A model generated the notes under the pieces. It ran no database searches and was not told where the DNA came from. It worked only from the letters and a program-made list of their open reading frames with translations. Shown piece after piece: positions 13,648-50,638 of a stretch of 64,000 bases of DNA. The translations under genes and the position numbers were made by a program. Source of the DNA: Burkholderia stagnalis (GTDB taxonomy: Bacteria; Pseudomonadota; Gammaproteobacteria; Burkholderiales; Burkholderiaceae). The stretch covers positions 186,001 to 250,000 of the forward strand of contig NZ_CADESW010000009.1 of assembly GCF_902830275.1 (NCBI RefSeq), read 5' to 3'. Within the stretch, counting starts at the first letter, position 1; each line of letters opens with the position of its first letter.

Positions 13648-15000
13648 ATGCACAACCGAATTCGCCTGTTCCCCGTTTCGTGCGCGCTCGCGGCCGCGGC
13701 CGTGCTGGCGGCGTGCTCGTCGCCGCCGAAGCCGATCTACCAGCAGGAGCAGTTCGACGCGACCACCAGCCCGTACTCCCGCGCGTTCCACGCGAAATCC
13801 GACGCGACCTGCGAAGCGGCGCGCCGCGCGCTGCTGAGCCAGGGCTACGTCGCGGTGTCGCCCCGCGCCGATTCGGTCGACGGCAGCAAGAATTTCCAGC
13901 CGAGCAACGACATGCACGTGGTGATCGAATTCCACGTCGTGTGCGCGGACGCGAACGCGGACGGCACGTCGAGCATCGCGTACGTGAACGCGGTGCAGGA
14001 CCGCTACACGCTGAAGAAGTCGAACACGTCGGCAAGCGTCGGCCTCAGCGTGTTCGGCTCGCTGTCGCTGCCGATCGGCTCGAGCGACGACGCGCTCGTG
14101 AAGACCGCGAGCGAGACGATTCCGGCCGGGGTGTTCTACGAGCGCTATTTCAACCTCGTCGACCATTTCCTGAAGGTCGACCCGGCCCGCCGCGACCGCG
14201 CGACCGTCAAGGCTGCCGAGAAGGAGCCCGTCGCGCCGCTGCCGGAGCCCGCGCCGACGCCGCAGGGCGAGCCGATCAAGATGACGACGCCGGTCGTGCC
14301 GACGCCGGCCGCGCCGCCGGTGCCGGCCTCCGCCGTGGCGCCGGCTTCGGGCACGGCGGTGCCGCCGGGTTCGGCCGCGCCTGCGGTGACGGTGCCCGCC
14401 GCGCGGGCCGCGGTTGCGCCGGCGGCTTCCGTGGCCGTGACGGCGTCCGCGCCTGTTGCGGCGTCTACGCCGGCCGTCTCCGCGTCGGCTCCGGTTACTG
14501 CATCCGCTGCCGCGTCCGTGTCGGCCACCGCACCGGCATCCGCTGCCGTCTCCGCATCGGCTGCTGCGCCCGCATCCGCGCCGGCCTCGACATCGGCGAC
14601 TGCGCCGACCTCCGCATCGACCTCGACATCGGCGACTGCGCCGGCATCCGCATCGGCCTCGACATCGGTGACTGCACCGACCTCCGCACCGGCCTCGACA
14701 TCGGTGACTACGCCGGCCTCCGCACCGGCCTCGACACGGGCGACTACTGCGCCGGCCTCGACATCAGCGACTGCGCCGACCTCCGCACCGGCCCCGGCAT
14801 CGGCGACCGCACCGGCCGCCGCACCGCATACCGCATCGGCGCCGCCCGCCGCCGCCCCGACGCCCGCTTCCGCACCCGCTCGCACGCCGACCGCCGCGCC
14901 GGTGTCGACCACGCCGGCCGACAAGGCGCCGGCACCCGCCGCCATCACGACCATCGAGGCTGCCGCCCCCGCACCGTCGGGCCCGCGCCGCGCAGGCTGA
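13648..15000 (+). CDS. DUF2242 lipoprotein with long Ala/Pro/Ser/Thr-rich tail
   Basis: A 450-residue predicted lipoprotein. The lipobox LAAC ends at Cys23 after a hydrophobic signal. Residues about 30-175 form the DUF2242 domain (YQQEQFD, CEAARRALLSQGY, FNLVDHFLKVDP). From about residue 200 to the end the protein is a low-complexity tail of Ala, Pro, Ser and Thr made in part by a 36-bp tandem repeat. Such tails often act as flexible spacers across the periplasm or cell wall. ATG 13648 is chosen because it begins the signal peptide; frames upstream lack conserved features. Confidence 0.82.
   Translation: MHNRIRLFPVSCALAAAAVLAACSSPPKPIYQQEQFDATTSPYSRAFHAKSDATCEAARRALLSQGYVAVSPRADSVDGSKNFQPSNDMHVVIEFHVVCADANADGTSSIAYVNAVQDRYTLKKSNTSASVGLSVFGSLSLPIGSSDDALVKTASETIPAGVFYERYFNLVDHFLKVDPARRDRATVKAAEKEPVAPLPEPAPTPQGEPIKMTTPVVPTPAAPPVPASAVAPASGTAVPPGSAAPAVTVPAARAAVAPAASVAVTASAPVAASTPAVSASAPVTASAAASVSATAPASAAVSASAAAPASAPASTSATAPTSASTSTSATAPASASASTSVTAPTSAPASTSVTTPASAPASTRATTAPASTSATAPTSAPAPASATAPAAAPHTASAPPAAAPTPASAPARTPTAAPVSTTPADKAPAPAAITTIEAAAPAPSGPRRAG
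14585..14827 (+). repeat. 36-bp imperfect tandem repeat inside the DUF2242 gene
   Basis: The start of the unit (CCTCGACATCGG or a close variant) recurs at 14585, 14621, 14657, 14693 and 14729, then at 14756 after a 27-bp unit and at 14792. The unit length keeps the frame and encodes 12-residue blocks of Ala, Ser, Thr and Pro. Copy number is a likely site of strain variation. Confidence 0.8.
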
Positions 15001-36186: not shown

Positions 36187-36210
36187 TGACGGCCGCGCAC
36201 CGGTTCCGAC

Positions 36211-36291
36211 GATTCAGGCGATTCAGGCGATTCAGGCGATTCAGGCGATTCAGGCGATTCAGGCGATTCAGGCGATTCAGGCGATTCAGGC
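36211..36291. repeat. Nine perfect 9-bp tandem repeats (GATTCAGGC)
   Basis: Nine exact copies of GATTCAGGC from 36211 to 36291, followed by a partial GATCAGG. The array fills the gap between ankB and the convergent LysR gene, and its last copy holds the LysR stop codon. A 9-bp period keeps reading frame, so it could extend the LysR C-terminus with LNR-type triplets after slippage past the stop. Typical VNTR. Confidence 0.95.
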
Positions 36292-37185
36292 GATCAGGTC
36301 GCGCATCAACTGCATCAACTGCTCGCGCAGCCACTGGTTGGCGTGGTCGCGATCCGCGCTGCGGTGCCAGTAGCAGCAGTATTCGAGATCCGGCAATTCG
36401 AACGGCAGTTCGAGCACGCGCGCCGGGTAGCTGCGCAGCAGCCTGAGCGGCGCGGTCAGCGCGAGATCGCCGCGCATCGCGATCAGCGGCGCGACCATGT
36501 AGTGCTGCACCCGCATCTGGATGTTGCGGCGCTGCCCGAGGCGCGCGAGCTCCGCATCGACGTGGCCGCTGCCCTTGCGGCGGCTCGATACGTGGATATG
36601 CCCCATCGCGAGATAGTCGTCCAGCGTCAGCACGTCGCCCTTGAAAGGATGATCGCGGCGGATCATGCACGCATAGCGGTCGCGCACGAGCAGCGCCTGC
36701 TGCAGGTTCGGATCGCCGATCAGCGCAGAATCGATCGCGATGTCGACGGAGCCGTTCGCGAGCGCGGTCGGCAGCTCCCGGCGGTCCATGTAGTAGCTGC
36801 GCACCTGCATGCGGGGCGCATGCTGCTGCAGCAGTTCGCCGAGCGCCGGCATCAGCAGCGCCTCGGTCAGGTCGCTCATGCTCAGCCGGAACACGCGCTC
36901 GGACGACGCGGGATCGAACACGTCCCCTTCGTGTGCGCTGGCATCGAGCAGTTGCAACGCCTCGCGCACCCGGCCGACGATGTTCTCCGCCATCGGCGTC
37001 GGCACCATTCCCGCCGGCGTGCTCACGAACAGCGGATCGTTCAGCGTCTTGCGCAGCCGCGCGAGCGCGTTGCTGACGGCCGGCTGCGTGATGCTCAGCA
37101 GCTCTGCCGCGCGCGTCAGGTTGCGCTTGTTGTAGATCGCCTCGAATACGACGAACAGATTCAGATCAATCTTCGTTAAGCGCAT
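36286..37185 (-). CDS. LysR-type transcriptional regulator (NodD/LinR-like group)
   Basis: A 299-residue LysR beginning MRLTKIDLNLFVVFEAIYNKRNLT, with HTH SITQPAVSNALARLRKTLNDPLF, the form typical of the NodD-like subgroup. Effector domain intact. It is upstream of the acyl-CoA dehydrogenase operon end, 88 bases from it, and on the same strand, so it may be a read-through passenger or regulate aromatic/acyl catabolism elsewhere. The C-terminus (LMRDLIA) is encoded next to the 9-bp array. Confidence 0.87.
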   Translation of the reverse strand: MRLTKIDLNLFVVFEAIYNKRNLTRAAELLSITQPAVSNALARLRKTLNDPLFVSTPAGMVPTPMAENIVGRVREALQLLDASAHEGDVFDPASSERVFRLSMSDLTEALLMPALGELLQQHAPRMQVRSYYMDRRELPTALANGSVDIAIDSALIGDPNLQQALLVRDRYACMIRRDHPFKGDVLTLDDYLAMGHIHVSSRRKGSGHVDAELARLGQRRNIQMRVQHYMVAPLIAMRGDLALTAPLRLLRSYPARVLELPFELPDLEYCCYWHRSADRDHANQWLREQLMQLMRDLIA

Positions 37186-41137: not shown

Positions 41138-41547
41138 CGCATGCTCGCGGAATCAGATTGATCCAGCATAGCGAGCGCGCAGCCATTTTTGAAATTTATT
41201 TGATGAATCGGATGGTATTCATTTTGTGAATTCCTGGCTGCCCGGTCGAACGAATGCCGGGCGGAACCCGCCGAGCAGGCACGACTTGCGACAACGGGGC
41301 ATAACCGCTCGCGTTGGCCGCAAAGGTATCGACAGCAGCGAGCGACCGGGGCGTCATTGCCGCAATCAATGCAAATTCATTATGTTTTTCCTGATCAAAC
41401 AAAATCAAAACGCCAGATGCGTCTTGATTATCACCAAACACCCACACCCCGAATTAATTTGATCCAATCAAACTTGATCCACTTTAATTGACAGCCCTGT
41501 CATAGTTACCAGTTAAACCAAATATATTAAGACCGTATCGTACCGAC
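41138..41547. other. AT-rich divergent region before the peptide cluster
   Basis: About 410 bases clearly poorer in GC than flanking DNA, between the histidine phosphatase gene and the PqqD-like gene. It holds no convincing gene. TTGACA at 41488-41493 is a good -35 element for the plus strand; at 16-19 bases downstream the DNA is AT-rich (AGTTAAAC) but has no clear -10 consensus, and TATATT at 41523-41528 is too far away to pair with it. This is the likely start of the peptide operon. Confidence 0.5.
41488..41528 (+). promoter_or_regulatory. Candidate promoter of the peptide operon
   Basis: TTGACA (41488-41493) is a consensus -35 element. The AT-rich run GTTAAACCAAATATATT follows, so the -10 element may be a weak match near 41511-41517 or TATATT at 41523-41528 with a different -35. 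It lies 20-60 bases before the first gene of the cluster. Confidence 0.35.
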
Positions 41548-41832
41548 ATGCACCCGCCATTAGATCACGCACGCATGAGATACGAGAAAAACAATGGATT
41601 GAAAGTCAAACCCATAGACAACGGGCTAAGCTGCATTATTTTCAATCGGGACGCAAGAACACTGCACCAGCTCAACACTGCCGCATGGTTTATTCTCGAA
41701 ATTTGCAATCAACGCTCGCCCGACGAAATCGAAAAGCTCGTGCACGATACGGGCCTCACGCTTCAAGCGCATGAAATCCTGGATTGCTTATGCGCATTGA
41801 AGAAAATCGGCGCAATTTCCATTGCACCATAA
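41548..41832 (+). CDS. PqqD-like RiPP recognition element protein
   Basis: A 94-residue PqqD-family protein. The central segment LNTAAWFILEICNQRSPDEIEKLV matches the PqqD helix motif (LNxTAxxIWxLxDGxxTxEEI), with three beta strands before it. Such RRE proteins bind the leader of a precursor peptide and deliver it to tailoring enzymes. It stands 21 bases upstream of a 54-codon candidate precursor gene. The start ATG 41548 lacks a strong ribosome-binding site; ATG 41575 is possible. Part of a nine-gene operon of lower GC content. Confidence 0.85.
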   Translation: MHPPLDHARMRYEKNNGLKVKPIDNGLSCIIFNRDARTLHQLNTAAWFILEICNQRSPDEIEKLVHDTGLTLQAHEILDCLCALKKIGAISIAP

Positions 41833-41853
41833 CCCTTCGAAGGATGATCAAAC

Positions 41854-42018
41854 ATGCAAAACCAGGACGTATTGACGAAGCTGAAGGAAGCACTCCAACA
41901 AGAGGACACCAGCGTAACGCCGTCGATCAAGCTGATCGGGCCGGAAATCGTTCTCCAAACACAATACGCGAACGTGAATGTCGAGAGACCGAGCCTTTCG
42001 GGTAAATCCGGCGCTTAA
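41854..42018 (+). CDS. Candidate RiPP precursor peptide (54 residues)
   Basis: The frame begins at ATG 41854 after AAGGA at a 10-base spacing. The product starts MQNQDVLTKLKEALQQEDTS, an amphipathic leader-like helix, continues VTPSIKLIGPEIVLQTQ, and ends YANVNVERPSLSGKSGA. There is no Cys and no GG cleavage site. Position directly after the PqqD-like gene and before the radical SAM gene is typical of precursors. A competing frame (ATG 41844) has no spacing to the ribosome-binding site and gives an unstructured sequence. The role is inferred; no similarity to a known peptide was recognised. Confidence 0.7.
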   Translation: MQNQDVLTKLKEALQQEDTSVTPSIKLIGPEIVLQTQYANVNVERPSLSGKSGA

Positions 42019-42031
42019 GCAGCAGGCTCAA

Positions 42032-42053
42032 GGAAGGGGGCCACACCCCTTCC
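42032..42053 (+). promoter_or_regulatory. Stem-loop just after the precursor gene
   Basis: GGAAGGGG (42032-42039) pairs perfectly with CCCCTTCC (42046-42053), with a 6-base loop, 13 bases after the precursor stop. There is no U run. Hairpins in this position usually protect the short precursor transcript or act as leaky terminators so that precursor is made in excess of enzymes. Confidence 0.6.
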
Positions 42054-42078
42054 CCAATTCAACGCGGGATATCCGATC

Positions 42079-44526
42079 ATGCAGTCTGGCTTCACTCAAT
42101 CCATCGCATTCGCGCGTGGCCGCGCGCTCGCCAGTGGCCCCGTCGTCTTGCTGATCAATCCGCCGTTGTGGAGTGCGCATGCCCCGTATCTCGCAATACC
42201 GTTGCTTGCCGGTGTGCTGAGAGAGAAAGGAAAACCGGTCAGGTGTCTCGATCTCAATATCGAATTTCTCGATCTGGTCGTGTCTGCACGCGGACTCTCG
42301 GAAATCGGCAAGCTGCTGGAGCGTCGGACGGCAAAGGACATAATCGAGCGTCAAGCGATCGAACAGGCAAAAGTCGTCTGCGAATCCGCCATCGCCAGAG
42401 TCGATTCAGCCCGCGCCATTCTGCGCAGCTTCGATTCCCTGACGAACCATCACGAATTCAATCAAGCAAAAATCACGATGAGAGATGCCTTGCGAGTGAT
42501 TTCCGCGTCTTTCGACGGTTTGCGCTTTGATCTCACCACCGAAGATTTCGACTACCTGGCACCGTCGTCGGCGGCAATCAGGCGTGCCGCAACCAACCCC
42601 CTTTCCCTGTACCGCTGGGCGTTCGAAAAAATCATCCCGGACGCCATTGCCGATCCGGACATCGGCCTGGTCGGAATTTCCATCTCGGCGGAAACCCAGC
42701 TGACGCCGGCGGTGACCGCGGCGACATTGATCAAGGCATTGCGCCCGAATCTAAAAATTGTCGTCGGCGGAAACTATACGACTCGCATGATGAGTGCCTG
42801 GAGCGGCGAACTACATCCGTTCCACGACATTTTCGACTACTGCATCCTGTATGAAGGCGAAGAGGCGCTGCCCGCGCTTTACGAGCGTCTTTTCGAACGG
42901 AGGCTGGGCCCCATTCCGGGTTTGTCAGAGGTCATCGCCGGGAATACTGTCCATACGCCCCCCGTGAAGACGGCGCTGAAGCATGCGGCAAAACCGGCCT
43001 TCGACTTGATTCCTCTCGAAAAATATTTTTCGCCGGGCCCGGTGCTGCCTGTCTTTTCATCGCGAGGTTGTGCATGGAAGTGTGCATTCTGTTCGATCCC
43101 CTATGCGAGCGGCAGCTTTCGTCGGCGAACGGCCAGCGAGGTGGCTGCGGAAATCGCCGAGCTGGCCCGCCTGCATGGCTCGCGGTACTTCATGTTCGTC
43201 GACGAGATCATGACGATCCGTTCGCTCGCGGATGTCAGCCGGGAACTGATTGCGATCGGCAGTCCGATCAAGTGGTATGCGGAAACGAGATTCAGCCAGC
43301 AATGGACGCAGGATATTGCCGACGAACTTTATCGCGCTGGCTGTCGTCGCCTGAATTTCGGGTTGGAGTCGTATAACCAGCGGATCCTCGATTTGATGGA
43401 AAAGGAAGTGCAGGTCGAGTACATCGAAGACAACCTAGAAATCTGCCTGAAGGCGGGCATTGCGGTGCATCTCTTCGCCATCCTGGGGTTTCCGGGTGAA
43501 ACACTGGAAGAAGCCGCCAGAACGGTCGCGTTTTGCGAACGTGTGGTCGAGCGGTCACGCACGGTCTACGGCAACGCGTATTCCTCGTGGGGCGCCAGCC
43601 GGTTTACGGTCGACGTCCATTCCCCCGTCGGAAAAGATCCGGAGCGCTTCGGCGTTCGACTTGTCGAGCCGCCGGAAAATCACGACCTGTCGCTCAGTCG
43701 CGAGATCGACTACGTTCATTCCGGAGGAAGCATATTTGAGCAGGTCGGGGCCGACATGAATCCGCGGGCTCGAAACATGAGCTTCATTTCGCAAGTGTCG
43801 CGTTTTCATCGGTCGTTATCGACGGCAAGCGAAGAAGAAGCATTTCTCAGAACCTGTCTCGGGACAGGATTACCCGGCGTGGCGCGGCGTAGCCTATCCG
43901 TATGGGAGCGTCTGCCGGAAAGAGACATTGCGCTGTCTCCGGAAGTCACGATCTGTCATACGCAGCGATCCGTGCTGAACGCTTCCGTTCACGCTCATAC
44001 GGTGATCTACGATCCGCGGACGGGGTACCTGATCGAACTTCCGATTCCGGACCTGAATCTGGATCCGCTGAGAATCAAACAAAGTCATGAAAGCGTCGTG
44101 CAATGCCTGGCGCCGCACATCGGCGGGCAGGCAGATGAGACGGTTGCCGCACTTTGCCGCTTCGGGATGTTCGACTTGTCCGAGCCATTGGCAGCAGTTG
44201 ACTTCGACTCACCGAATTTCTCGGTCATCGTCGCGGAGGCGCATGTTCATACACAGCCGTCCGGCCCTGGAAATCGGGTGCTTGTCAGCGGCATCACCGG
44301 TGTTGCCTCAGAGCTCGACGGCCCTGGATTGTTGCTGTGGGAGGCAATCGCCAGCCCGGACGGGCTGACGGCCGGGCACTTGAAAAGCCTGATGGACATC
44401 GCCGTGGACAAGGCGAGATTCACTGGCGACGTTCGGACCTTGCTCGAATGCGGCCTTGCCTTCGCACGAGAAGACAGAACACGCGTCGCCGCGGACGCAG
44501 AGAGGCTCATTGCCGCGGCAGGCTGA
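42079..44526 (+). CDS. B12-binding radical SAM enzyme of the peptide cluster
   Basis: An 815-residue protein with three parts. Residues about 10-300 form a cobalamin-binding-type domain (VVLLINPPLW then PLLAGVLREKGKPVRCLDLN; later VGISISAETQLTPAVTAA and VVGGNYTTRM). The radical SAM motif CAWKCAFC places the cluster Cys at 331, 335 and 338, and NFGLESYNQRILDLMEK and LFAILGFPGETLEEA are typical of the TIM-barrel. About 300 further residues follow; the stretch from about 735 (ELDGPGLLLWEAIA) resembles a PqqD-type recognition fold. The B12 class often performs C-methylation or other hard-to-reach carbon chemistry. Target residue unknown. Confidence 0.85.
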   Translation: MQSGFTQSIAFARGRALASGPVVLLINPPLWSAHAPYLAIPLLAGVLREKGKPVRCLDLNIEFLDLVVSARGLSEIGKLLERRTAKDIIERQAIEQAKVVCESAIARVDSARAILRSFDSLTNHHEFNQAKITMRDALRVISASFDGLRFDLTTEDFDYLAPSSAAIRRAATNPLSLYRWAFEKIIPDAIADPDIGLVGISISAETQLTPAVTAATLIKALRPNLKIVVGGNYTTRMMSAWSGELHPFHDIFDYCILYEGEEALPALYERLFERRLGPIPGLSEVIAGNTVHTPPVKTALKHAAKPAFDLIPLEKYFSPGPVLPVFSSRGCAWKCAFCSIPYASGSFRRRTASEVAAEIAELARLHGSRYFMFVDEIMTIRSLADVSRELIAIGSPIKWYAETRFSQQWTQDIADELYRAGCRRLNFGLESYNQRILDLMEKEVQVEYIEDNLEICLKAGIAVHLFAILGFPGETLEEAARTVAFCERVVERSRTVYGNAYSSWGASRFTVDVHSPVGKDPERFGVRLVEPPENHDLSLSREIDYVHSGGSIFEQVGADMNPRARNMSFISQVSRFHRSLSTASEEEAFLRTCLGTGLPGVARRSLSVWERLPERDIALSPEVTICHTQRSVLNASVHAHTVIYDPRTGYLIELPIPDLNLDPLRIKQSHESVVQCLAPHIGGQADETVAALCRFGMFDLSEPLAAVDFDSPNFSVIVAEAHVHTQPSGPGNRVLVSGITGVASELDGPGLLLWEAIASPDGLTAGHLKSLMDIAVDKARFTGDVRTLLECGLAFAREDRTRVAADAERLIAAAG

Positions 44527-44562
44527 CAAACCGGATCACACCTTCTACAGGACATTGCACTC

Positions 44563-45705
44563 GTGGCTGAATCCCATTCCGTCAGCGTCGATCGCCTGCT
44601 TTCCGGCGGCTACTTTGGCGATACAAGACACGTATTGGCGTCGTGCGCCGATCGAGCGGCGGCCTATCTCGACTTTGCCGACGACGATGCGTCAATCGAT
44701 CCGTTGCGCGAAATGCTGAGTTCGTCGAGTGAGACAGGCTCGTGGCAAATCGTTTTGCATCCCATTGCGCGATATGCTGTCCGACGCGCAATGTGGCGGC
44801 TCGTGCACGGCGGGGAGGCAGAAACGACACCGGCAGTGCGGCTGCCGTCTGAAACATGGGCACGGTCGGTGTCTGAAAACCATCCACGAGCACATGCGAG
44901 TATCGGCGAAATAGTCTGGTTGCACCCGAGCAACGCGCCGGAATGCGCAGCCGTAATGTCCCTGCTTTACGAGGCCGAGATTGCCCCACGTGGATTATCC
45001 GCTCGCGTGGCGCTGATCGACGGAACGCCGGCGACCGTCCGGGGTTGCCAGGACGGGCATGCGCTCCTGATGCGCCTGTTGCCGGAAACCGCTCAATCGT
45101 GCATCCAGCATGTGCGACTCATGTGCACCTATTCGGTAGACGGAAAGGCCAGCGCGTCGGAGGCGCCTCAACCTGCGTACTTCGATAGCGTGTCGACCCC
45201 GACGATTCCTGGAGCGATCTTCCTGTTCTCCGGCGCACTGGAGGAGCCCTGGCTGGCAGCCGAGTCGCTGTTGCACGAGGCTACGCATACCAAGCTGTTC
45301 GATCTTTACATGAGTCCGGGTTTGCTCGTGCGCGAGTACGACGCACGGAAGTCCGAGAGCGTGGTCAGTACGTGGAACAAGAATCTGAAATGGCGGCGAA
45401 ATCATTGGCCCTTCGATCAGGGTTTGGGCGCCTACCACGTGTACATTCATCTGATCGCATTCTTCCTGGCCGCGCGTACCGATACGACTTCGGATCACCC
45501 ACGCATTCGCGCGCATGTTACTGACAAGCTGGCGCAGGCTATCAGGCGAGCCGCGCTACTCGAGCCGCAATTGTCCGCACAGGCCGCCACCTGGTTGACC
45601 GACGAGGGTGCTGCATTCCTTGCCTGGTTGAGGGACTGTCGTGCTCAATTGACGGAAATGGCATCCGGGGACTGTCCACGAGAGAGGGAGCCGGGAATCC
45701 AATGA
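44563..45705 (+). CDS. HExxH-motif putative peptide-modifying metalloenzyme
   Basis: A 380-residue protein starting at GTG 44563 (AGGA 10 bases before). The metal motif is HEATH at residues 238-242 in LLHEATHTKLFDLYMSPG, the context known for the HEXXH family of RiPP-associated enzymes, some of which act as 2-oxoglutarate-dependent beta-hydroxylases rather than peptidases. N-terminal residues 1-200 lack recognisable motifs. No signal peptide. Its stop overlaps the start of the MATE gene. Hydroxylation of the precursor is inferred from family and context; a protease role is less likely but not excluded. Confidence 0.78.
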   Translation: MAESHSVSVDRLLSGGYFGDTRHVLASCADRAAAYLDFADDDASIDPLREMLSSSSETGSWQIVLHPIARYAVRRAMWRLVHGGEAETTPAVRLPSETWARSVSENHPRAHASIGEIVWLHPSNAPECAAVMSLLYEAEIAPRGLSARVALIDGTPATVRGCQDGHALLMRLLPETAQSCIQHVRLMCTYSVDGKASASEAPQPAYFDSVSTPTIPGAIFLFSGALEEPWLAAESLLHEATHTKLFDLYMSPGLLVREYDARKSESVVSTWNKNLKWRRNHWPFDQGLGAYHVYIHLIAFFLAARTDTTSDHPRIRAHVTDKLAQAIRRAALLEPQLSAQAATWLTDEGAAFLAWLRDCRAQLTEMASGDCPREREPGIQ

Positions 45706-47081
45706 GCACGACACTGATTCGCACGCCCCTCCTTCGCGAGGAATTCTTCGTGATCGCGCGGCTGGCGGCGACGATGGCCACGACAAGAATGCTTTCATAC
45801 GTGTCCGGGATCATAACGATGTCGATTCTCGGACATTACTCGACGGTCGGAATGGCAAGTCTCACGCTTGCCATGGCGATTCAACAGGTCATGGTGGTCG
45901 CGAGCTTCAGCGGGCTCGTGGGTACGGAGACGGAGGTGGCAAAACGTCACGGCGCGGGAGAGCACGAGCGAGCAACCGCCTTCGTCCTTTCGTCGATTCT
46001 GGTCGCGTTTGGAATGGGTTGCTTGATGTCTGCCCTGTCGGTCATCGTTTCGTGGGTGTTTGCGTCACGGCATGCAGCAGACGGGGTCGACGCCTTTTCG
46101 CCGCTGCAGACGATCGGCTACGGCATGCCGGCGTTTTGTATCTATCTATCGATTTCATTCTATTTCGAGGCGACCCAACGGCCCAGGTTCGTGTTGCTTC
46201 TCGCGATACTCGGTACGTCGGTCACCGCGCTCGCCACTTTCTGGCTCGTCCATGCCTCATCTGCCCTGGGAATCTCCAGTGAGTCGAGTGCCGCGCTGGC
46301 GCTGACGCTTTCACGCTACGTACTGGCGGCCGTGGCGCTGGCAATGGTTCTATGGATGAACCGCCGCGGTTTGTCCGCTGCGATGGGTCAGATCGGGACG
46401 TGCTTGCCGCACGACTGTCTTGCGCTGTTGAAGATTGGCGTTCCGGCGGGATTCGCTGACGCAATGACAACGGTCTCGGTATCGTCGATGACCTGGTTCG
46501 TCGGCAATCTCGGCGTCGTCGCACTGAACGCCTATCAGATTGCTTCCCAGTGGCTTGGCTTGCTGATGCTGATCGGCGCCGGCTGCGCGACGGCAGCAAC
46601 GATCCGTGCGACGCAGGCGATGGGCGCGCTGGATCGAACGCGCGCCGTGAATGCTGCGAGCGCCGGCATCATGCTTCTCCTGATGCTGGACGCCATTGCG
46701 TGGATTGCCTATCTCGCCATACCCGGACTCTGGGCGCATATCTATGGCGCGTCGCCAGAGGTAACACGCTATGCGATTCCGAACCAAAAATGGGCAACGT
46801 TGATTTTTGCAATCGAATGCCCGCTCATACTGTTGATCGGCGTCGGGCGGGCTTACCGATTGACGGTCAGGTTGCCCGTCATCAAGGCGTGCTGCTTCAT
46901 TCTGATTGCCTTGCCCGCGTGCGTCTGTGTCGTCCGATACTTTTCCGATCCGTTGCCTTATCTGCTGTCCGGTATCGCGCCAGCGGTATTGGTCGCGCTT
47001 TTGATCGTCGCATGGAACATGCGGCCGATATTTGATTCCGGGCATGCTGAAACGAAGCTGAATGCCTCTGAGACCAGGTAG
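45702..47081 (+). CDS. MATE-family multidrug/peptide exporter
   Basis: A 459-residue membrane protein with about 12 spans in two related halves; the first half has GHYSTVGMASLTLAMAIQQ and FSGLVGTETEVAKRHGAGEHERA, the second IGVPAGFADAMTTVSVSSM and NLGVVALNAYQIASQWLGL, both MATE signatures. Overlap ATGA with the preceding gene indicates coupling. It is probably the exporter of the finished peptide, driven by a cation gradient. No ABC exporter or peptidase domain is encoded in the cluster, so leader removal would need a host protease. Confidence 0.85.
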   Translation: MSTTLIRTPLLREEFFVIARLAATMATTRMLSYVSGIITMSILGHYSTVGMASLTLAMAIQQVMVVASFSGLVGTETEVAKRHGAGEHERATAFVLSSILVAFGMGCLMSALSVIVSWVFASRHAADGVDAFSPLQTIGYGMPAFCIYLSISFYFEATQRPRFVLLLAILGTSVTALATFWLVHASSALGISSESSAALALTLSRYVLAAVALAMVLWMNRRGLSAAMGQIGTCLPHDCLALLKIGVPAGFADAMTTVSVSSMTWFVGNLGVVALNAYQIASQWLGLLMLIGAGCATAATIRATQAMGALDRTRAVNAASAGIMLLLMLDAIAWIAYLAIPGLWAHIYGASPEVTRYAIPNQKWATLIFAIECPLILLIGVGRAYRLTVRLPVIKACCFILIALPACVCVVRYFSDPLPYLLSGIAPAVLVALLIVAWNMRPIFDSGHAETKLNASETR

Positions 47082-47110
47082 TCGATTTCTCAATTTCACA
47101 CGGGATAGTC

Positions 47111-47383
47111 ATGCCGACGTTGATACTTTCCGCACAACTCGCCGCATTGGCAAACGGCCAACTGCAACTGGAACGAGATGAGCAAAGCATTGATGAAATC
47201 TGTCGCGGCCTGACTGCAGCGTATCCTGCCCTGACGGCAGCCATACTGGATGCGCACGGCCGGATATCGCCCTTCGTCGGCGTGTTCGTCGACGGCGGCC
47301 AGATCGATCCTGCCGCGGATCGTCATATGGCGCTGCCGAGAACGTCGGTCGTTACGTTGATTTCCGCCGTCGCGGGAGGCTGA
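47111..47383 (+). CDS. ThiS/MoaD-like ubiquitin-fold sulfur carrier
   Basis: A 90-residue beta-grasp protein ending AVAGG, the di-glycine terminus that E1 enzymes adenylate and thiolate. GVFVDGGQIDPAADRHMALP fits the MoaD strand pattern (VNGxxxxxDxxLxDGD). It lies 30 bases after the MATE gene and only one base separates its stop from the E1 gene. It is the predicted donor of sulfide as a thiocarboxylate for the YcaO-TfuA pair. The genome will have other ThiS and MoaD proteins; a dedicated copy here is unusual. Confidence 0.8.
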   Translation: MPTLILSAQLAALANGQLQLERDEQSIDEICRGLTAAYPALTAAILDAHGRISPFVGVFVDGGQIDPAADRHMALPRTSVVTLISAVAGG

Positions 47384-47384
47384 C

Positions 47385-48557
47385 ATGTGCGACATGCTCA
47401 CGGTAGAGGAGCACAGCTTCTATTCCAGACAGATCGCCGTGCCCCAGATCGGCGAAACAGGACAATTGGCATTGAAGCGCGCCAGCGTGCTTGTAGCGGG
47501 CGCAGGTGGCCTGGGGTGTCCGATTCTGCTTTATCTCGCCGCTGCCGGCGTCGGGCGAATCGGCATCGCCGACGCCGATCTCGTCTCGCTGAGCAATCTG
47601 CACCGACAGGTCATCTATGGTGTCGCAGATTGCCGCGAAACCAAGGTCCGGACGGCGGCCGCCGCAATGCGTGCACGCAACCCGTTCGTCGAGGTCGTTG
47701 AGCATGCCGTTGCGATCGATGATGAAAACGTGTCGGACATGATTTCGGGCTATGACATCATCGTCGATGGAACGGACAATTTCGCAACCAAGTTCCTGCT
47801 TAACGACGCATGTTGGTTCTTGTCAAAACCGTTGGTATACGGATCGATCCACCGCTTCGAAGGCCAGGTCGCCGTATTCAACCACGCCGGTGCGGATGCG
47901 ACGGAGCGCGGTCCAAACTACCGGGACCTATTCCCGTCGCCGCCGCCGGCGGCCCTTGCGCCCGATTGCTCGACAGCGGGCGTGCTCGGCGTGCTGCCCG
48001 GCATTGTCGGCTGCCTGCAGGCAAACGAAGTGATCAAGTTGATTACAGGAATAGGCGAACCGCTTTCAGGGACATTGCTGCTTGTCGACGCATTGAGCGG
48101 CTCGACGAAAAGCATGAGATTGAAGAAGAATCCGAACAATCCGTTGAGCGGCACCTCTCCTTCCATTCGCAACGTACGGAGCGTGACGACATCGAGCAAC
48201 GTACCGGACATGCCGATTCGGTCGATTTCTGCGAATACCTTGATCGAATGGCACGCGCAAGGCCGGCCGCTAGTACTTGTCGATGTCAGGGAACCGGATG
48301 AACGCAAGCGCGTGTCTCTCGGAGGGGTGCACTGGCCACTGAGCGAATCGGACATCGACGTTCCCGAGATCGATGCAACACGCATAGCCGTCATGTATTG
48401 CCAGTCCGGCGCAAGAAGCAAGCGCGCGGCAGAGAAACTGATCGCACGGGGATACGCAAGAGAACACCTCGTCAGCCTGGACGGCGGCGTTACGGCCTTT
48501 CTTGACGCCGGATACAGGCCGGACGCGCTGGATGACCCGATGGGCGGCGGGCAATGA
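47385..48557 (+). CDS. ThiF/MoeB-like E1 fused to rhodanese domain
   Basis: A 390-residue protein. The E1 domain shows VLVAGAGGLGCPILLYLA (nucleotide loop), DADLVSLSNLHRQVIY, DGTDNFATKFLLND and CSTAGVLGVLPGIVG, with probable catalytic Cys195. The usual zinc Cys pairs are absent: GPNYRDLFP replaces the GPCYRCLFP of MoeB, and NPNNPLSG stands where the second CxxC should be. The C-terminal rhodanese domain (from about residue 285) has Cys339 in YCQSGARS, the persulfide carrier. It should adenylate the adjacent ThiS-like protein and convert it to a thiocarboxylate. The next gene overlaps its stop. Confidence 0.87.
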   Translation: MCDMLTVEEHSFYSRQIAVPQIGETGQLALKRASVLVAGAGGLGCPILLYLAAAGVGRIGIADADLVSLSNLHRQVIYGVADCRETKVRTAAAAMRARNPFVEVVEHAVAIDDENVSDMISGYDIIVDGTDNFATKFLLNDACWFLSKPLVYGSIHRFEGQVAVFNHAGADATERGPNYRDLFPSPPPAALAPDCSTAGVLGVLPGIVGCLQANEVIKLITGIGEPLSGTLLLVDALSGSTKSMRLKKNPNNPLSGTSPSIRNVRSVTTSSNVPDMPIRSISANTLIEWHAQGRPLVLVDVREPDERKRVSLGGVHWPLSESDIDVPEIDATRIAVMYCQSGARSKRAAEKLIARGYAREHLVSLDGGVTAFLDAGYRPDALDDPMGGGQ

Positions 48558-49765
48558 TTCGGTTGAACTCGAGTCTGAGAATGCGCTCGCTCGACGAGTC
48601 GCTGGCGCTGGTGCGCTCGGTTGCAGGCGAATACGGCATTACTCGTGTGACGAACACGACAGCCCTGGACCGGATCGGCATTCCTGTCTTTGCAAGCATC
48701 CGCCCCAATGCGGTGCCTGGTTCGCTCTGCGTGAGTGCCGGCAAAGGCCTGCTGCCGGCGGAAGCAGAGATGGGGGCATTCATGGAAGCGATCGAACTCG
48801 CATCGTGCGAGTTCGGACGATCCGGCATCGGCTTCGCGCCGGTGACGGTTGAACGAATGCTTGATGGTTATGATGCACGGGTGACGATGGCCGATTTCGC
48901 CCCCCTTCTCGGGCAGCGATTCGACAGCAATGAACTCATCGCATGTACGCCTGGAGAAGAGGTGCTGTCCGGAGAGACGGTGCTGGTCCCGTCGGAACTC
49001 GTCTTCTCCCCGTTTGACGACAATCCTTTTGCTACGAAATTCGGCAGCAGTTCGGTGGGACTCGCATCAGGAAACAATCTGCTGGAAGCGTCGGTTCATG
49101 GTCTGGCGGAGTTAATCGAGCACGATATTGCGTCCTTTGGCTTCGTACGTGACGAATCCTGCCTGGTCAGGCTGGACTCCGCTCCAATGCCGATCAAGCG
49201 GCTGCGTCAGCTCTGCGAGGATGCCGGCTTTTCGTTGTATCTACGCCATACGCCGAATGCATTCGGCCTGCCCTATTTTCGCGCGACACTGTTCGACAAC
49301 ACGGATGACGCTCCGCTGGCCGTGTGCGCCGGGTACGGCTTACATCCCATTCGGTCGATTGCGGCGGTGCGCGCCATGACAGAGGCCGCGCAGTCACGCC
49401 TCACCGCCATTCACGGCGGCCGTGACGATCTGACCAAACGCCTCGAACATTGGCCTCAAAGCGCACGCAAACAGGAGATCGAGGCAATTTCCGCCCTGAG
49501 AACCAAGGAATCCAACGCCGACAATGCCGTTGATTTCGCGAACATCGTGGATCATGAGCAGCATGTTACGTCGCTGGAAACGGCGTGGGACTATATGGTC
49601 GACGTGTTGCGGGAACGAAACCTGTCCCAAGTAGTGCGAATTTGCCTGAGCCAGGCATCGGACCCGTTCCAGGTCGTACGAATCATCGTGCCGGGCCTGG
49701 AAGCCTTCTCACCCGAACACATGCGGATAGGACGACGTCTCCATGACTACATCATGTCGTTGTAG
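48554..49765 (+). CDS. YcaO-domain ATP-dependent amide-activating enzyme
   Basis: A 403-residue YcaO protein. ATP-binding elements are visible as SAGKG (about residue 57), EAEMGAFMEAIE, GLASGNNLLEASVHGLAELIEHD (read in parts) and AVRAMTEAAQSR; the C-terminal domain ends IVPGLEAFSPEHMRIGRRLHDYI. YcaO enzymes phosphorylate a backbone amide; with TfuA beside them they form thioamides rather than azolines. No fused E1 (cyclodehydratase) is present, agreeing with a thioamidation role. ATG 48554 overlaps the preceding stop; the 3' end overlaps tfuA by 23 bases. Confidence 0.9.
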   Translation: MIRLNSSLRMRSLDESLALVRSVAGEYGITRVTNTTALDRIGIPVFASIRPNAVPGSLCVSAGKGLLPAEAEMGAFMEAIELASCEFGRSGIGFAPVTVERMLDGYDARVTMADFAPLLGQRFDSNELIACTPGEEVLSGETVLVPSELVFSPFDDNPFATKFGSSSVGLASGNNLLEASVHGLAELIEHDIASFGFVRDESCLVRLDSAPMPIKRLRQLCEDAGFSLYLRHTPNAFGLPYFRATLFDNTDDAPLAVCAGYGLHPIRSIAAVRAMTEAAQSRLTAIHGGRDDLTKRLEHWPQSARKQEIEAISALRTKESNADNAVDFANIVDHEQHVTSLETAWDYMVDVLRERNLSQVVRICLSQASDPFQVVRIIVPGLEAFSPEHMRIGRRLHDYIMSL

Positions 49766-50432
49766 TCAACTTTACATGTTTGTCGGTCCGACAGCGGTGG
49801 GCAGCGTGATAGAAACGAAATCGACTCCGGAGATAACGTTCATGCCCCCTGTCCGACGCGGCGACATCGCGAAACTTATCTCCTCCCGTCAGACTCCTGC
49901 GACCATGGCGATTGTCGACGGGACATATTTCGCCTATCCGGCAGTTGGACATATTGAAATTCGCGATGCGATACAGCGTGGATGGGAGGTCTGGGGACTA
50001 TCGTCGATGGGTGCGATTCGTGCGTTTGAAATGCGCGACCTGGGGATGAGAGGCTTCGGGACGGTGTATGAGGAATTCTTCAAGCAGATCGATTTTCAGG
50101 ATGACGAAGTAGCGCTTATTCATGGCGATGAAGCACCCTATGTTCCGTTGAGTGAACCGCTGATTCATCTTCGCCGGTGCCTCAAGAGCTTCGTTGTTCG
50201 TGGACACATAACCGAAGCCGCGGCGATCGCGATCGCCGCGGCGCTCAAGAGCGTCTGGTTTGGAAAGCGGACCATTGCCCATTTCGGCGCATTGCTCGAA
50301 TCGGTACCCGGCGGAATCAGTCTGACCTATCGCGAACTGGTTTCAGAGGTAGACGCTCATCGAGTCAAGCGAGAAGATCTCGAGCGGTTCATACGCGAAA
50401 GCCCCTGGATGTGCCAAGGCCAGCCCTCTTGA
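49743..50432 (+). CDS. tfuA: TfuA-like thioamidation partner
   Basis: A 229-residue TfuA protein. The core region contains MAIVDGTYFAYPAVGHIEIRDAI, WGLSSMGAIRAFEMRDLGMRGFGTVYEEF (in parts) with the invariant SSMGA, and HGDEAPYVPLSEPLIHLR. ATG 49743 lies inside ycaO (23-base overlap); ATG 49776 (MFVGPTAVG) is an alternative start. TfuA has been shown to release sulfide from thiocarboxylated ThiS and to help YcaO. The presence of both the carrier and its E1 in this operon fits that mechanism. Last gene of the cluster. Confidence 0.87.
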   Translation: MTTSCRCSQLYMFVGPTAVGSVIETKSTPEITFMPPVRRGDIAKLISSRQTPATMAIVDGTYFAYPAVGHIEIRDAIQRGWEVWGLSSMGAIRAFEMRDLGMRGFGTVYEEFFKQIDFQDDEVALIHGDEAPYVPLSEPLIHLRRCLKSFVVRGHITEAAAIAIAAALKSVWFGKRTIAHFGALLESVPGGISLTYRELVSEVDAHRVKREDLERFIRESPWMCQGQPS

Positions 50433-50638
50433 AAGTGTCCGCCGTGCGGCAACCCCTACACCATGACTGCTACGCCGGGCCGGTGACGCGACCATTTCAA
50501 GCGTCGCGCGCTCGGTCAGACCAGGGCCGCTGCTCCGGCACCGCGTGAAGGAGATCAGCTTCGAGGCCGTTGCCGGCGCGAGAATGTGCGAGTTGTCCTA
50601 CGCCTTGTCCAGCGCCGTCGCTTCGACGTTTTCCGCCG

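What the first reader, a model, noticed from the sequence alone, without database searches (positions are those of the whole stretch)
41488..50432. A nine-gene RiPP cluster joining YcaO-TfuA, a private ThiS-E1-rhodanese sulfur line, B12 radical SAM and HExxH enzymes
The gene families together predict a thioamidated peptide that is also modified by two further unusual enzymes. Seen: gene families, one-strand order, overlaps and short gaps. Known: YcaO with TfuA makes thioamides, and TfuA can release sulfide from thiocarboxylated ThiS. Inferred: the carrier, its E1-rhodanese activator and TfuA-YcaO form a self-contained thioamidation unit, and the product also gets radical SAM and HExxH modifications. 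I do not recognise a characterised cluster of this composition.
Basis: partly seen in the sequence, partly recalled or inferred. Interest (0 to 1): 0.95.

Follow-up and report, generated by a model that had tools for sequence, protein, structure and literature searches.

The report
Rearranged gene cluster for thioamide peptide
Nine neighbouring genes most likely build a small peptide in which a backbone oxygen is swapped for sulfur; the sulfur-swapping half of the set recurs in many bacteria, while this copy has its own peptide and extra enzymes, and the product is still unknown.

Summary
The nine genes are there as described (41548-50432, + strand), on a low-GC stretch (58% against 70%). A self-contained thioamidation unit is the best reading. 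YcaO-TfuA-HExxH recur in that order in 22 of 22 loci found by YcaO similarity (Pseudomonas, other proteobacteria, Streptomyces); 18 of 22 also have ThiS and E1. A precursor HMM hits 21 of 22, all with core H-x-[AS]-N-N. Trees put the window's YcaO, TfuA and E1 among these. The window is thus a rearranged offshoot: unrelated precursor, B12-radical SAM, possible leader-binding protein, MATE exporter, distant HExxH enzyme. Parts are in print: the Pseudomonas gene order stands as an uncharacterised 'YcaO cluster' (PMC8719888), and ThiS, MoeB and B12-radical SAM genes are reported near TfuA (PMC8120280). My searches of an open-licence library found no report of the HExxH link, the core motif or this combination. 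Weak points: no relative of the window's precursor, PqqD label at noise level, unusable structure model, chemistry untested. New variant of a known kind.

The parts
41548..41832 (+). Small protein, PqqD-like, possible stand-alone leader-binding protein (P0001)
   Evidence: PF05402 14.0 bits, below cut-off 23.4 and at noise level genome-wide; two of its 4 weak plasmid hits lie just behind a radical SAM gene (E 2e-3) and in an annotated PqqD chaperone (E 0.7)
41854..42018 (+). Putative 54-aa precursor peptide, C-terminal part ...IVLQTQYANVNVERPSLSGKSGA (P0002)
   Evidence: Position, upstream GAAGGA, coding-like codon-position GC; no homologue found
42079..44526 (+). B12-binding radical SAM protein, 815 aa, CxxxCxxC at 331 (P0003)
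   Evidence: PF04055 74.2 bits; TIGR03975 123.2 bits, under its cut-off 281.85; PF02310 30.2 bits, under 32.1
44563..45705 (+). HExxH protein, HEATH at residue 238 (P0004)
   Evidence: TIGR04267 aKG-HExxH-type peptide beta-hydroxylase 52.5 bits, cut-off 40
45702..47081 (+). MATE family exporter (P0005)
   Evidence: PF01554 98 bits; TIGR00797 93.3 bits, under its cut-off 147.4
47111..47383 (+). ThiS/MoaD-like sulfur carrier ending in AVAGG (P0006)
   Evidence: PF02597 21.0 bits (cut-off 22.5); MoaD-related solved chain at E 0.02
47385..48557 (+). E1 (ThiF/MoeB type) with C-terminal rhodanese domain (P0007)
   Evidence: PF00899 255.2 bits, PF00581 29.3 bits; Cys195 and Cys339 conserved among family E1s; NYRD where other E1s have C-x-x-C
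48554..49765 (+). YcaO (P0008)
   Evidence: PF02624 178.5 bits; best solved match MJ1094, E 6e-31
49743..50432 (+). TfuA (P0009)
   Evidence: PF07812 115.6 bits; best solved match 6xp8, E 2.6e-20

Best explanation
The cluster makes, modifies and exports a thioamide-bearing RiPP. Inferred route: the E1-rhodanese protein activates the C-terminal Gly-Gly of its own ThiS-like carrier and loads it with sulfur as a thiocarboxylate; TfuA hydrolyses this and hands sulfide to YcaO; YcaO uses ATP to exchange a backbone carbonyl oxygen of the 54-aa precursor for sulfur, perhaps at or beside an Asn of ...QTQYANVNVE... The HExxH enzyme, probably iron/2-oxoglutarate dependent, hydroxylates or cleaves at Gln/Asn-type residues of the same core; the B12-radical SAM methylates carbon; the PqqD-like protein presents the leader; MATE exports the product. 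By descent its thioamidation half belongs to a wider family (my label: HxxNN family) whose common unit is precursor, YcaO, TfuA, HExxH, usually ThiS and E1, and usually an MFS exporter. Shown by computation: gene identities (except PqqD), recurrence of the unit, conserved core in the relatives, common descent of YcaO, TfuA and E1. Inferred: every chemical step, target residue and order.
For: YcaO-TfuA-HExxH in order in 22 of 22 loci found by YcaO similarity, ThiS and E1 in 18 of 22, MFS in 20 of 22. Precursor HMM hits in 21 of these 22 (13 of the 21 not in its training set), in L005, L032, L033, and in L120 from an independent TfuA sample, all 25 with H-x-[AS]-N-N. Window YcaO inside the family clade (94/90; outer clade 100/100), TfuA likewise (83/82; outer 100/99), E1 in a 22-row clade (99/98). 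Shared loss of C-x-x-C: 20 of 20 aligned E1s from HExxH loci against 0 of 4 E1s without HExxH. TfuA and HExxH in one uninterrupted frame in L048 and L055. Precedents: TfuA as ThiS-COSH hydrolase (passage in PMC13185837); YcaO-TfuA thioamidating Asn (passages of PMC13174530); HEXXH enzymes hydroxylating Asp, His and Gln and cutting the backbone (PMC12636437, part 1 of 6). M77, H182 and A278 of the window YcaO fit the TfuA-associated preferences Met-84, His-188, Ala-305 of PMC8120280 (my mapping by eye).
Against: The window precursor is not hit by the family HMM and is no more similar to six family precursor sequences than shuffled letters are. PqqD label at noise level. Radical SAM far below the methyltransferase cut-off. 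Window HExxH only 16-21% identical to the family's. Four of 22 family loci do without ThiS and E1, and the host has other ThiS-like genes, 5 over the cut-off, so a private carrier is not proven necessary. The trees warn of long branches, the window TfuA among them, and L006, an HExxH locus, falls outside the E1 clade. The 22 loci were found with YcaO patterns taken from four HExxH clusters, so they are not an unbiased set.
Confidence: 0.65

Rival explanations
1. Two separately acquired modules side by side: a ThiS-E1-YcaO-TfuA thioamidation unit, and a PqqD/precursor/radical SAM/HExxH/MATE RiPP cluster. The 54-aa peptide is the substrate of the second only; the thioamidation substrate was lost or lies elsewhere.
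For: Gene order differs from the family (there HExxH follows TfuA; here it precedes MATE and ThiS); the window HExxH is of another subfamily; the precursor lacks the family core. HExxH enzymes occur with PqqD-type proteins without TfuA: annotated PqqD protein in Streptomyces globosus.
Against: All nine genes lie on one strand with gaps or overlaps of at most 60 bases, share low GC, and only one precursor-like small ORF was recognised among the ORFs of the stretch. HExxH beside YcaO-TfuA is the rule in this branch.
Confidence: 0.14
2. YcaO and TfuA act on a housekeeping protein, as the YcaO-TfuA pair does on McrA in archaea, not on a dedicated peptide.
For: The best NCBIfam matches of YcaO (after scores; both under cut-off) and TfuA are the McrA-glycine thioamidation families. 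In L121 a relative lies beside a long Lys/Ala-rich ORF with two leader-plus-NN copies.
Against: TfuA occurs in 3 of 65 genomes of the genus, own included, on a low-GC stretch, unlike a housekeeping gene; the family has short dedicated precursors in 21 of 22 loci and MFS exporters in 20 of 22.
Confidence: 0.06
3. A thioamide RiPP as in the best explanation, but the HExxH protein is a peptidase or oxidative backbone cutter that releases the core, not a hydroxylase.
For: No dedicated protease gene was recognised among the nine; PflC both hydroxylates and cuts, and is proteolytic without leader (PMC12636437 part 1).
Against: TIGR04267 is named for hydroxylases; the family name alone does not decide, and the structure model was too poor to help.
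Confidence: 0.12

Closest known systems
Unnamed 'YcaO cluster' of Pseudomonas (PMC8719888, passages seen)
   Same: Lists precursor, YcaO, TfuA, unknown protein, ubiquitin-like protein, E1/ThiF, MFS, methyltransferase: the order of my 11 Pseudomonas loci up to MFS, where the third protein is HExxH-like.
   Different: No product, motif or HExxH identity in the passages seen. The window has another order and precursor, MATE, B12-radical SAM and a PqqD-like gene.
TfuA clusters of PMC8120280 (parts 1-4 of 6 read) and PMC6511847 (passages)
   Same: B12-radical SAM genes beside TfuA in Bradyrhizobium and Desulforegula; ThiS and MoeB in figure legends; two radical SAM genes in a Burkholderia thailandensis cluster; ThiS-like proteins in actinobacterial clusters.
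   Different: The parts read do not mention HExxH, nor E1 with ThiS, HExxH and B12-radical SAM in one cluster. Supplements were not readable.
std cluster, StdGH (PMC13174530, passages)
   Same: YcaO-TfuA shown in vitro to thioamidate a backbone Asn of a short precursor.
   Different: Tailoring by MNIO and a carbamoyltransferase fusion; core SNKEWQE.
aKG-HEXXH enzymes PflC/PosC and ChlBH (PMC12636437, part 1 of 6)
   Same: Same TIGR04267/IPR026337-type family as P0004 by name.
   Different: Partners there are MNIO-nitroreductase or radical SAM fusions, not YcaO-TfuA.
ycaO-tfuA of methanogens acting on McrA (PMC5589413, passages)
   Same: YcaO-TfuA pair; thiF, moaD, moeB sometimes nearby.
   Different: Target is a large enzyme subunit, not a RiPP precursor.

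Membership tests
Thioamidated RiPP (YcaO-TfuA) | YcaO and TfuA genes side by side, both over curated cut-off | tested here: met
   PF02624 178.5 bits (25.7) and PF07812 115.6 bits (30), overlapping by 23 bases
Thioamidated RiPP (YcaO-TfuA) | Short precursor conserved in related clusters | tested here: inconclusive
   Relatives have one (21 of 22 loci); the window's P0002 is not of that family and has no found homologue
Thioamidated RiPP (YcaO-TfuA) | Thioamide in the product | not testable with these tools
   Needs mass spectrometry
HxxNN family (my label) | YcaO, TfuA and E1 group with the family | tested here: met
   E1 reads RD as in the 19 other aligned E1s from HExxH loci
HxxNN family (my label) | Precursor with H-x-[AS]-N-N core | tested here: not met
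   No HMM hit; sequence QYANVNV instead. So the window is filed as an offshoot, not a member
aKG-HExxH peptide hydroxylase (TIGR04267) | Profile score over cut-off and HExxH motif | tested here: met
   52.5 bits against 40; HEATH at 238. Fold not confirmed: model pLDDT 48.6
RiPP radical SAM C-methyltransferase (TIGR03975) | Profile score over cut-off | tested here: not met
   123.2 bits against 281.85; CxxxCxxC present. Methylation is by likeness only
PqqD / RiPP recognition element | Profile score over cut-off | tested here: not met
   14.0 bits against 23.4; noise level in own genome
ThiS/MoaD sulfur carrier | ThiS profile over cut-off and C-terminal Gly-Gly | tested here: inconclusive
   21.0 bits against 22.5; ends AVAGG
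MoeZ-type E1-rhodanese | ThiF and rhodanese domains with their Cys residues | tested here: met
   255.2 and 29.3 bits; Cys195 and Cys339
MoeZ-type E1-rhodanese | C-x-x-C pair (recalled as zinc site) | tested here: not met
   NYRD at that place

The most novel reading that the evidence does not exclude
There is a distinct class of thioamidated RiPPs in proteobacteria and Streptomyces whose conserved core H-x-[AS]-N-N is thioamidated at Asn and oxidised by an HExxH enzyme that works physically with TfuA (one frame in two lineages), usually fed by a dedicated ThiS and an E1 that has lost the usual C-x-x-C pair. The window is a chimera of that machinery with a new leader-binding protein, a B12-radical SAM methylase and an unrelated precursor, so that one peptide would carry thioamide, hydroxyl and C-methyl groups.
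Probability: 0.45. Interest if true: 0.72.

Novelty: new variant of a known kind. Interest (0 to 1): 0.58.

Why it matters
It gives a testable substrate motif (H-x-[AS]-N-N) and a candidate dedicated sulfur donor for a branch of YcaO-TfuA systems for which I found no reported product. It identifies the 'unknown' third protein of those clusters as HExxH-like and points to TfuA-HExxH coupling, which would tie a thioamide step to an oxidative step. The window shows precursor, exporter and tailoring enzymes swapped around a kept thioamidation core.

Tried and rejected
Tried without result or against the reading: (1) Other clusters like the window through its radical SAM: 24 of 398 family genomes at E 1e-30 and 2 of 369 class genomes at E 1e-50, own genome counted in both; all are partial matches. 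The other class genome (G637) shows no TfuA hit in the two stretches looked at; one stretch has a Nif11-like ORF by my reading. The neighbours of the 23 family hits were not examined. Plasmids: 166 records, none covering 80% of the query. (2) Window precursor against the family: no HMM hit, no better than shuffles against six family precursor sequences. (3) PqqD profile as proof of a leader binder: noise level. (4) Structure of P0004: mean pLDDT 48.6, not used for a fold search; P0001 could not be submitted, machine busy. (5) Rfam: 0 matches; promoter- and terminator-like sites not above shuffles. (6) Core motif as text: 170 papers hold one of five strings, 10 were listed, unrelated by title.

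Rows dropped. A2 holds 16 of the 21 HExxH proteins (out: L035 partial, L048 fusion, L038, L040, L051). YcaO tree: out L050, L054; 7 of 19 sampled TfuA loci used. E1 tree: out L054. E1 motif table: out L035, L037, L050, L054, L055 (the last has no E1). TfuA tree: out L035, L038, L039, L040, L049, L050, L051, L054; 9 of 19 sampled loci used. One search stopped on a script error and was rerun; one search found no locus files and was redone.
Full report
What is there. Nine ORFs lie on one strand with gaps or overlaps of -23 to +60 bases, in a 58.0% GC stretch inside 69.6% GC surroundings. The two flanking genes (a histidine-phosphatase-like and a TetR-like ORF, names by my reading) were sought in 65 genomes of the genus, own included. 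On one contig they lie 1.7-3.7 kb apart in 13, 11.1-12.5 kb apart in 4 and 9.5 kb apart here; in the rest I found no such pair (the match list was cut, but its full-length matches come first). TfuA is found in 3 of those 65 genomes. The cluster sits at a variable site and is probably acquired.

Identities. YcaO, TfuA, E1-rhodanese, HExxH, MATE and radical SAM are well supported. The ThiS-like carrier is just under the Pfam cut-off, ends in Gly-Gly, and matches a MoaD-related solved chain weakly (E 0.02). The closest solved YcaO is MJ1094 (E 6e-31) and the closest TfuA 6xp8 (E 2.6e-20). The PqqD label is not established by score. Two hints favour it: of 4 weak plasmid hits, the best lies directly behind a radical SAM gene (E 2e-3) and another is an annotated PqqD chaperone (E 0.7).

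The recurring unit. Plasmid and genus searches with TfuA led to Paraburkholderia megapolitana (L032), Pantoea ananatis (L033) and G024 (L005). Each has a short ORF, YcaO, TfuA, an HExxH-like protein of 253-266 residues, ThiS, E1, MFS and one more gene. These HExxH proteins match TIGR04267 at 19.7-39.4 bits, below the cut-off of 40. A pattern scan of the genome collection with a YcaO alignment gave 22 loci: 11 Pseudomonas, and Roseateles, Glaciimonas, Herbaspirillum, Kosakonia, Chitinimonas, Rouxiella, Yersinia similis, Hoeflea, Candidatus Symbiopectobacterium and two Streptomyces. YcaO, TfuA and HExxH are there in that order in 22 of 22; ThiS and E1 in 18 of 22 (not L044, L048, L053, L055); MFS in 20 of 22 (not L048, L053); the window's radical SAM type in 0 of 22. 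tblastn with the window's PqqD-like, precursor and MATE proteins gave no hit at E 1e-4 in these loci. TfuA and HExxH share one uninterrupted frame in L048 and L055. Genes in pieces were seen in L035 (HExxH), L037 (precursor), L049 (TfuA), L050 (YcaO) and L054 (several).

The precursor family. An HMM from 11 precursors hits 21 of the 22 loci (not L055) and L005, L032, L033; 13 of the 21 were not in its training set. It also hits L120, from a TfuA sample drawn without regard to these clusters (E 1.2e-10). All 25 carry H-x-[AS]-N-N near the C-terminus. More distant: L121 has two copies of a similar leader with ESENN (49.7 and 46.0 bits with an HMM that was trained on them, so no independent test), and L006 has an ORF with VQNN before its YcaO, seen by eye and not hit by the HMM. 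The window's precursor is not hit. Its QYANVNV has Asn40 and Asn42; equating this with the NN core is conjecture.

How general is it? Of 398 Pseudomonadota genomes 14 have TfuA, own included. I looked at all 19 TfuA places outside the window: E1 near 3, ThiS near 2, HExxH near 1 (L120), the window's radical SAM type near 0. 13 of the 19 places come from one family (code f237). So most sampled TfuA loci lack this machinery; it marks one branch. These counts use HMMs trained on the branch itself and could miss very different HExxH or ThiS proteins.

Descent. YcaO: the window joins seven family rows at 94/90, inside a 28-row clade at 100/100 that holds every HExxH locus used plus L121, in which no HExxH was found. 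TfuA: 20 HExxH-bearing rows and L121 form one side of a 100/99 branch, with the window beside three enteric rows at 83/82. E1: the window lies in a 22-row clade at 99/98; L006, an HExxH locus, lies outside it, and the root was set on the host's other E1-like gene. The tree tool warned of long branches, the window's TfuA among them. All 20 aligned E1s from HExxH loci read RD where 4 of 4 E1s without HExxH keep C-x-x-C. Together this says that the window's thioamidation half descends from the family. The window's HExxH protein is a distant subfamily: 16-21% identity and a 37-column profile match at 48% probability, E 1.8e-4.

Mechanism. The carrier charged by E1-rhodanese would hand sulfur to TfuA, which releases it to YcaO. 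TfuA as a Ser-Lys hydrolase of ThiS-COSH is from a passage of PMC13185837; the primary paper is not held. S88 and K209 of the window TfuA stand in columns conserved in at least 93% of 27 aligned rows; that they are the catalytic pair is a guess. Asn as a thioamidation site has a precedent in StdGH. HEXXH enzymes hydroxylate Asp, His and Gln and can cut the backbone, which fits the His/Asn core of the relatives and the Gln/Asn stretch of the window. Targets, order and methylation are inferred. Against necessity of the private carrier: four family loci lack it and the host has five other ThiS-like matches over the cut-off.

What is in print. PMC8719888 lists a Pseudomonas 'YcaO cluster' of precursor, YcaO, TfuA, unknown protein, ubiquitin-like protein, E1/ThiF, MFS and methyltransferase (passages). 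PMC8120280 reports B12-radical SAM genes in TfuA clusters and shows MoeB and ThiS in figure legends (parts 1-4 of 6 read). PMC6511847 reports ThiS-like proteins in actinobacterial TfuA clusters (passage), and PMC5589413 thiF, moaD and moeB near archaeal ycaO-tfuA (passages). TfuA with HExxH found 1 paper; in the passages seen its single HEXXH is a reference title. TfuA, precursor peptide and Pseudomonas: 5 papers; three or more of thioamide, radical SAM, TfuA, Burkholderia: 8 papers; four or more of TfuA, Pseudomonas, Burkholderia, YcaO, radical SAM: 12 papers. From titles and abstract openings none reports this combination; most were not opened. The library holds open-licence papers only, and supplements could not be read.

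Verdict. A thioamide RiPP with a dedicated sulfur supply is the best reading, but its core is a recurring and partly catalogued unit. What is new is the HExxH link and NN core of that family, and the window's rearranged, further-tailored form.

Noticed in passing
L121 7932-8540 (-): A Lys/Ala-rich, H1-like ORF directly upstream of a YcaO-TfuA pair ends in two copies of a leader-plus-core like the HxxNN precursors (SGAAIESENN[TS]P); no HExxH, ThiS or E1 hit on this 11-kb contig.
   Followed up: partly
L006 7341-16613: Same-genus genome G033: ORF with HSAAVQNNF, YcaO, TfuA, HExxH (HEHCH), other genes, MFS, E1 and ThiS; a divergent HExxH-type cluster.
   Followed up: partly
L048 11136-12644; L055 10075-12198: TfuA and HExxH in one uninterrupted frame in Chitinimonas viridis and a Streptomyces.
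   Followed up: partly
L032 19817-28640: The Paraburkholderia megapolitana plasmid carries a second, distant MFS-YcaO-TfuA-ThiS-E1 set with JmjC/cupin genes and no HExxH hit, next to the first.
   Followed up: no
L054 9974-16243: In Candidatus Symbiopectobacterium the cassette is split into many frames, as in gene decay.
   Followed up: no
window 36210-36298: Nine-base tandem array CGATTCAGG, 10 copies at 98%.
   Followed up: no
window 14521-14826: 36-base imperfect tandem array, 8.8 copies.
   Followed up: no
window 41138-50638: The site between the two flanking genes varies in length across the genus: 1.7-3.7 kb in 13 genomes, 11.1-12.5 kb in 4; what fills it elsewhere was not examined.
   Followed up: no
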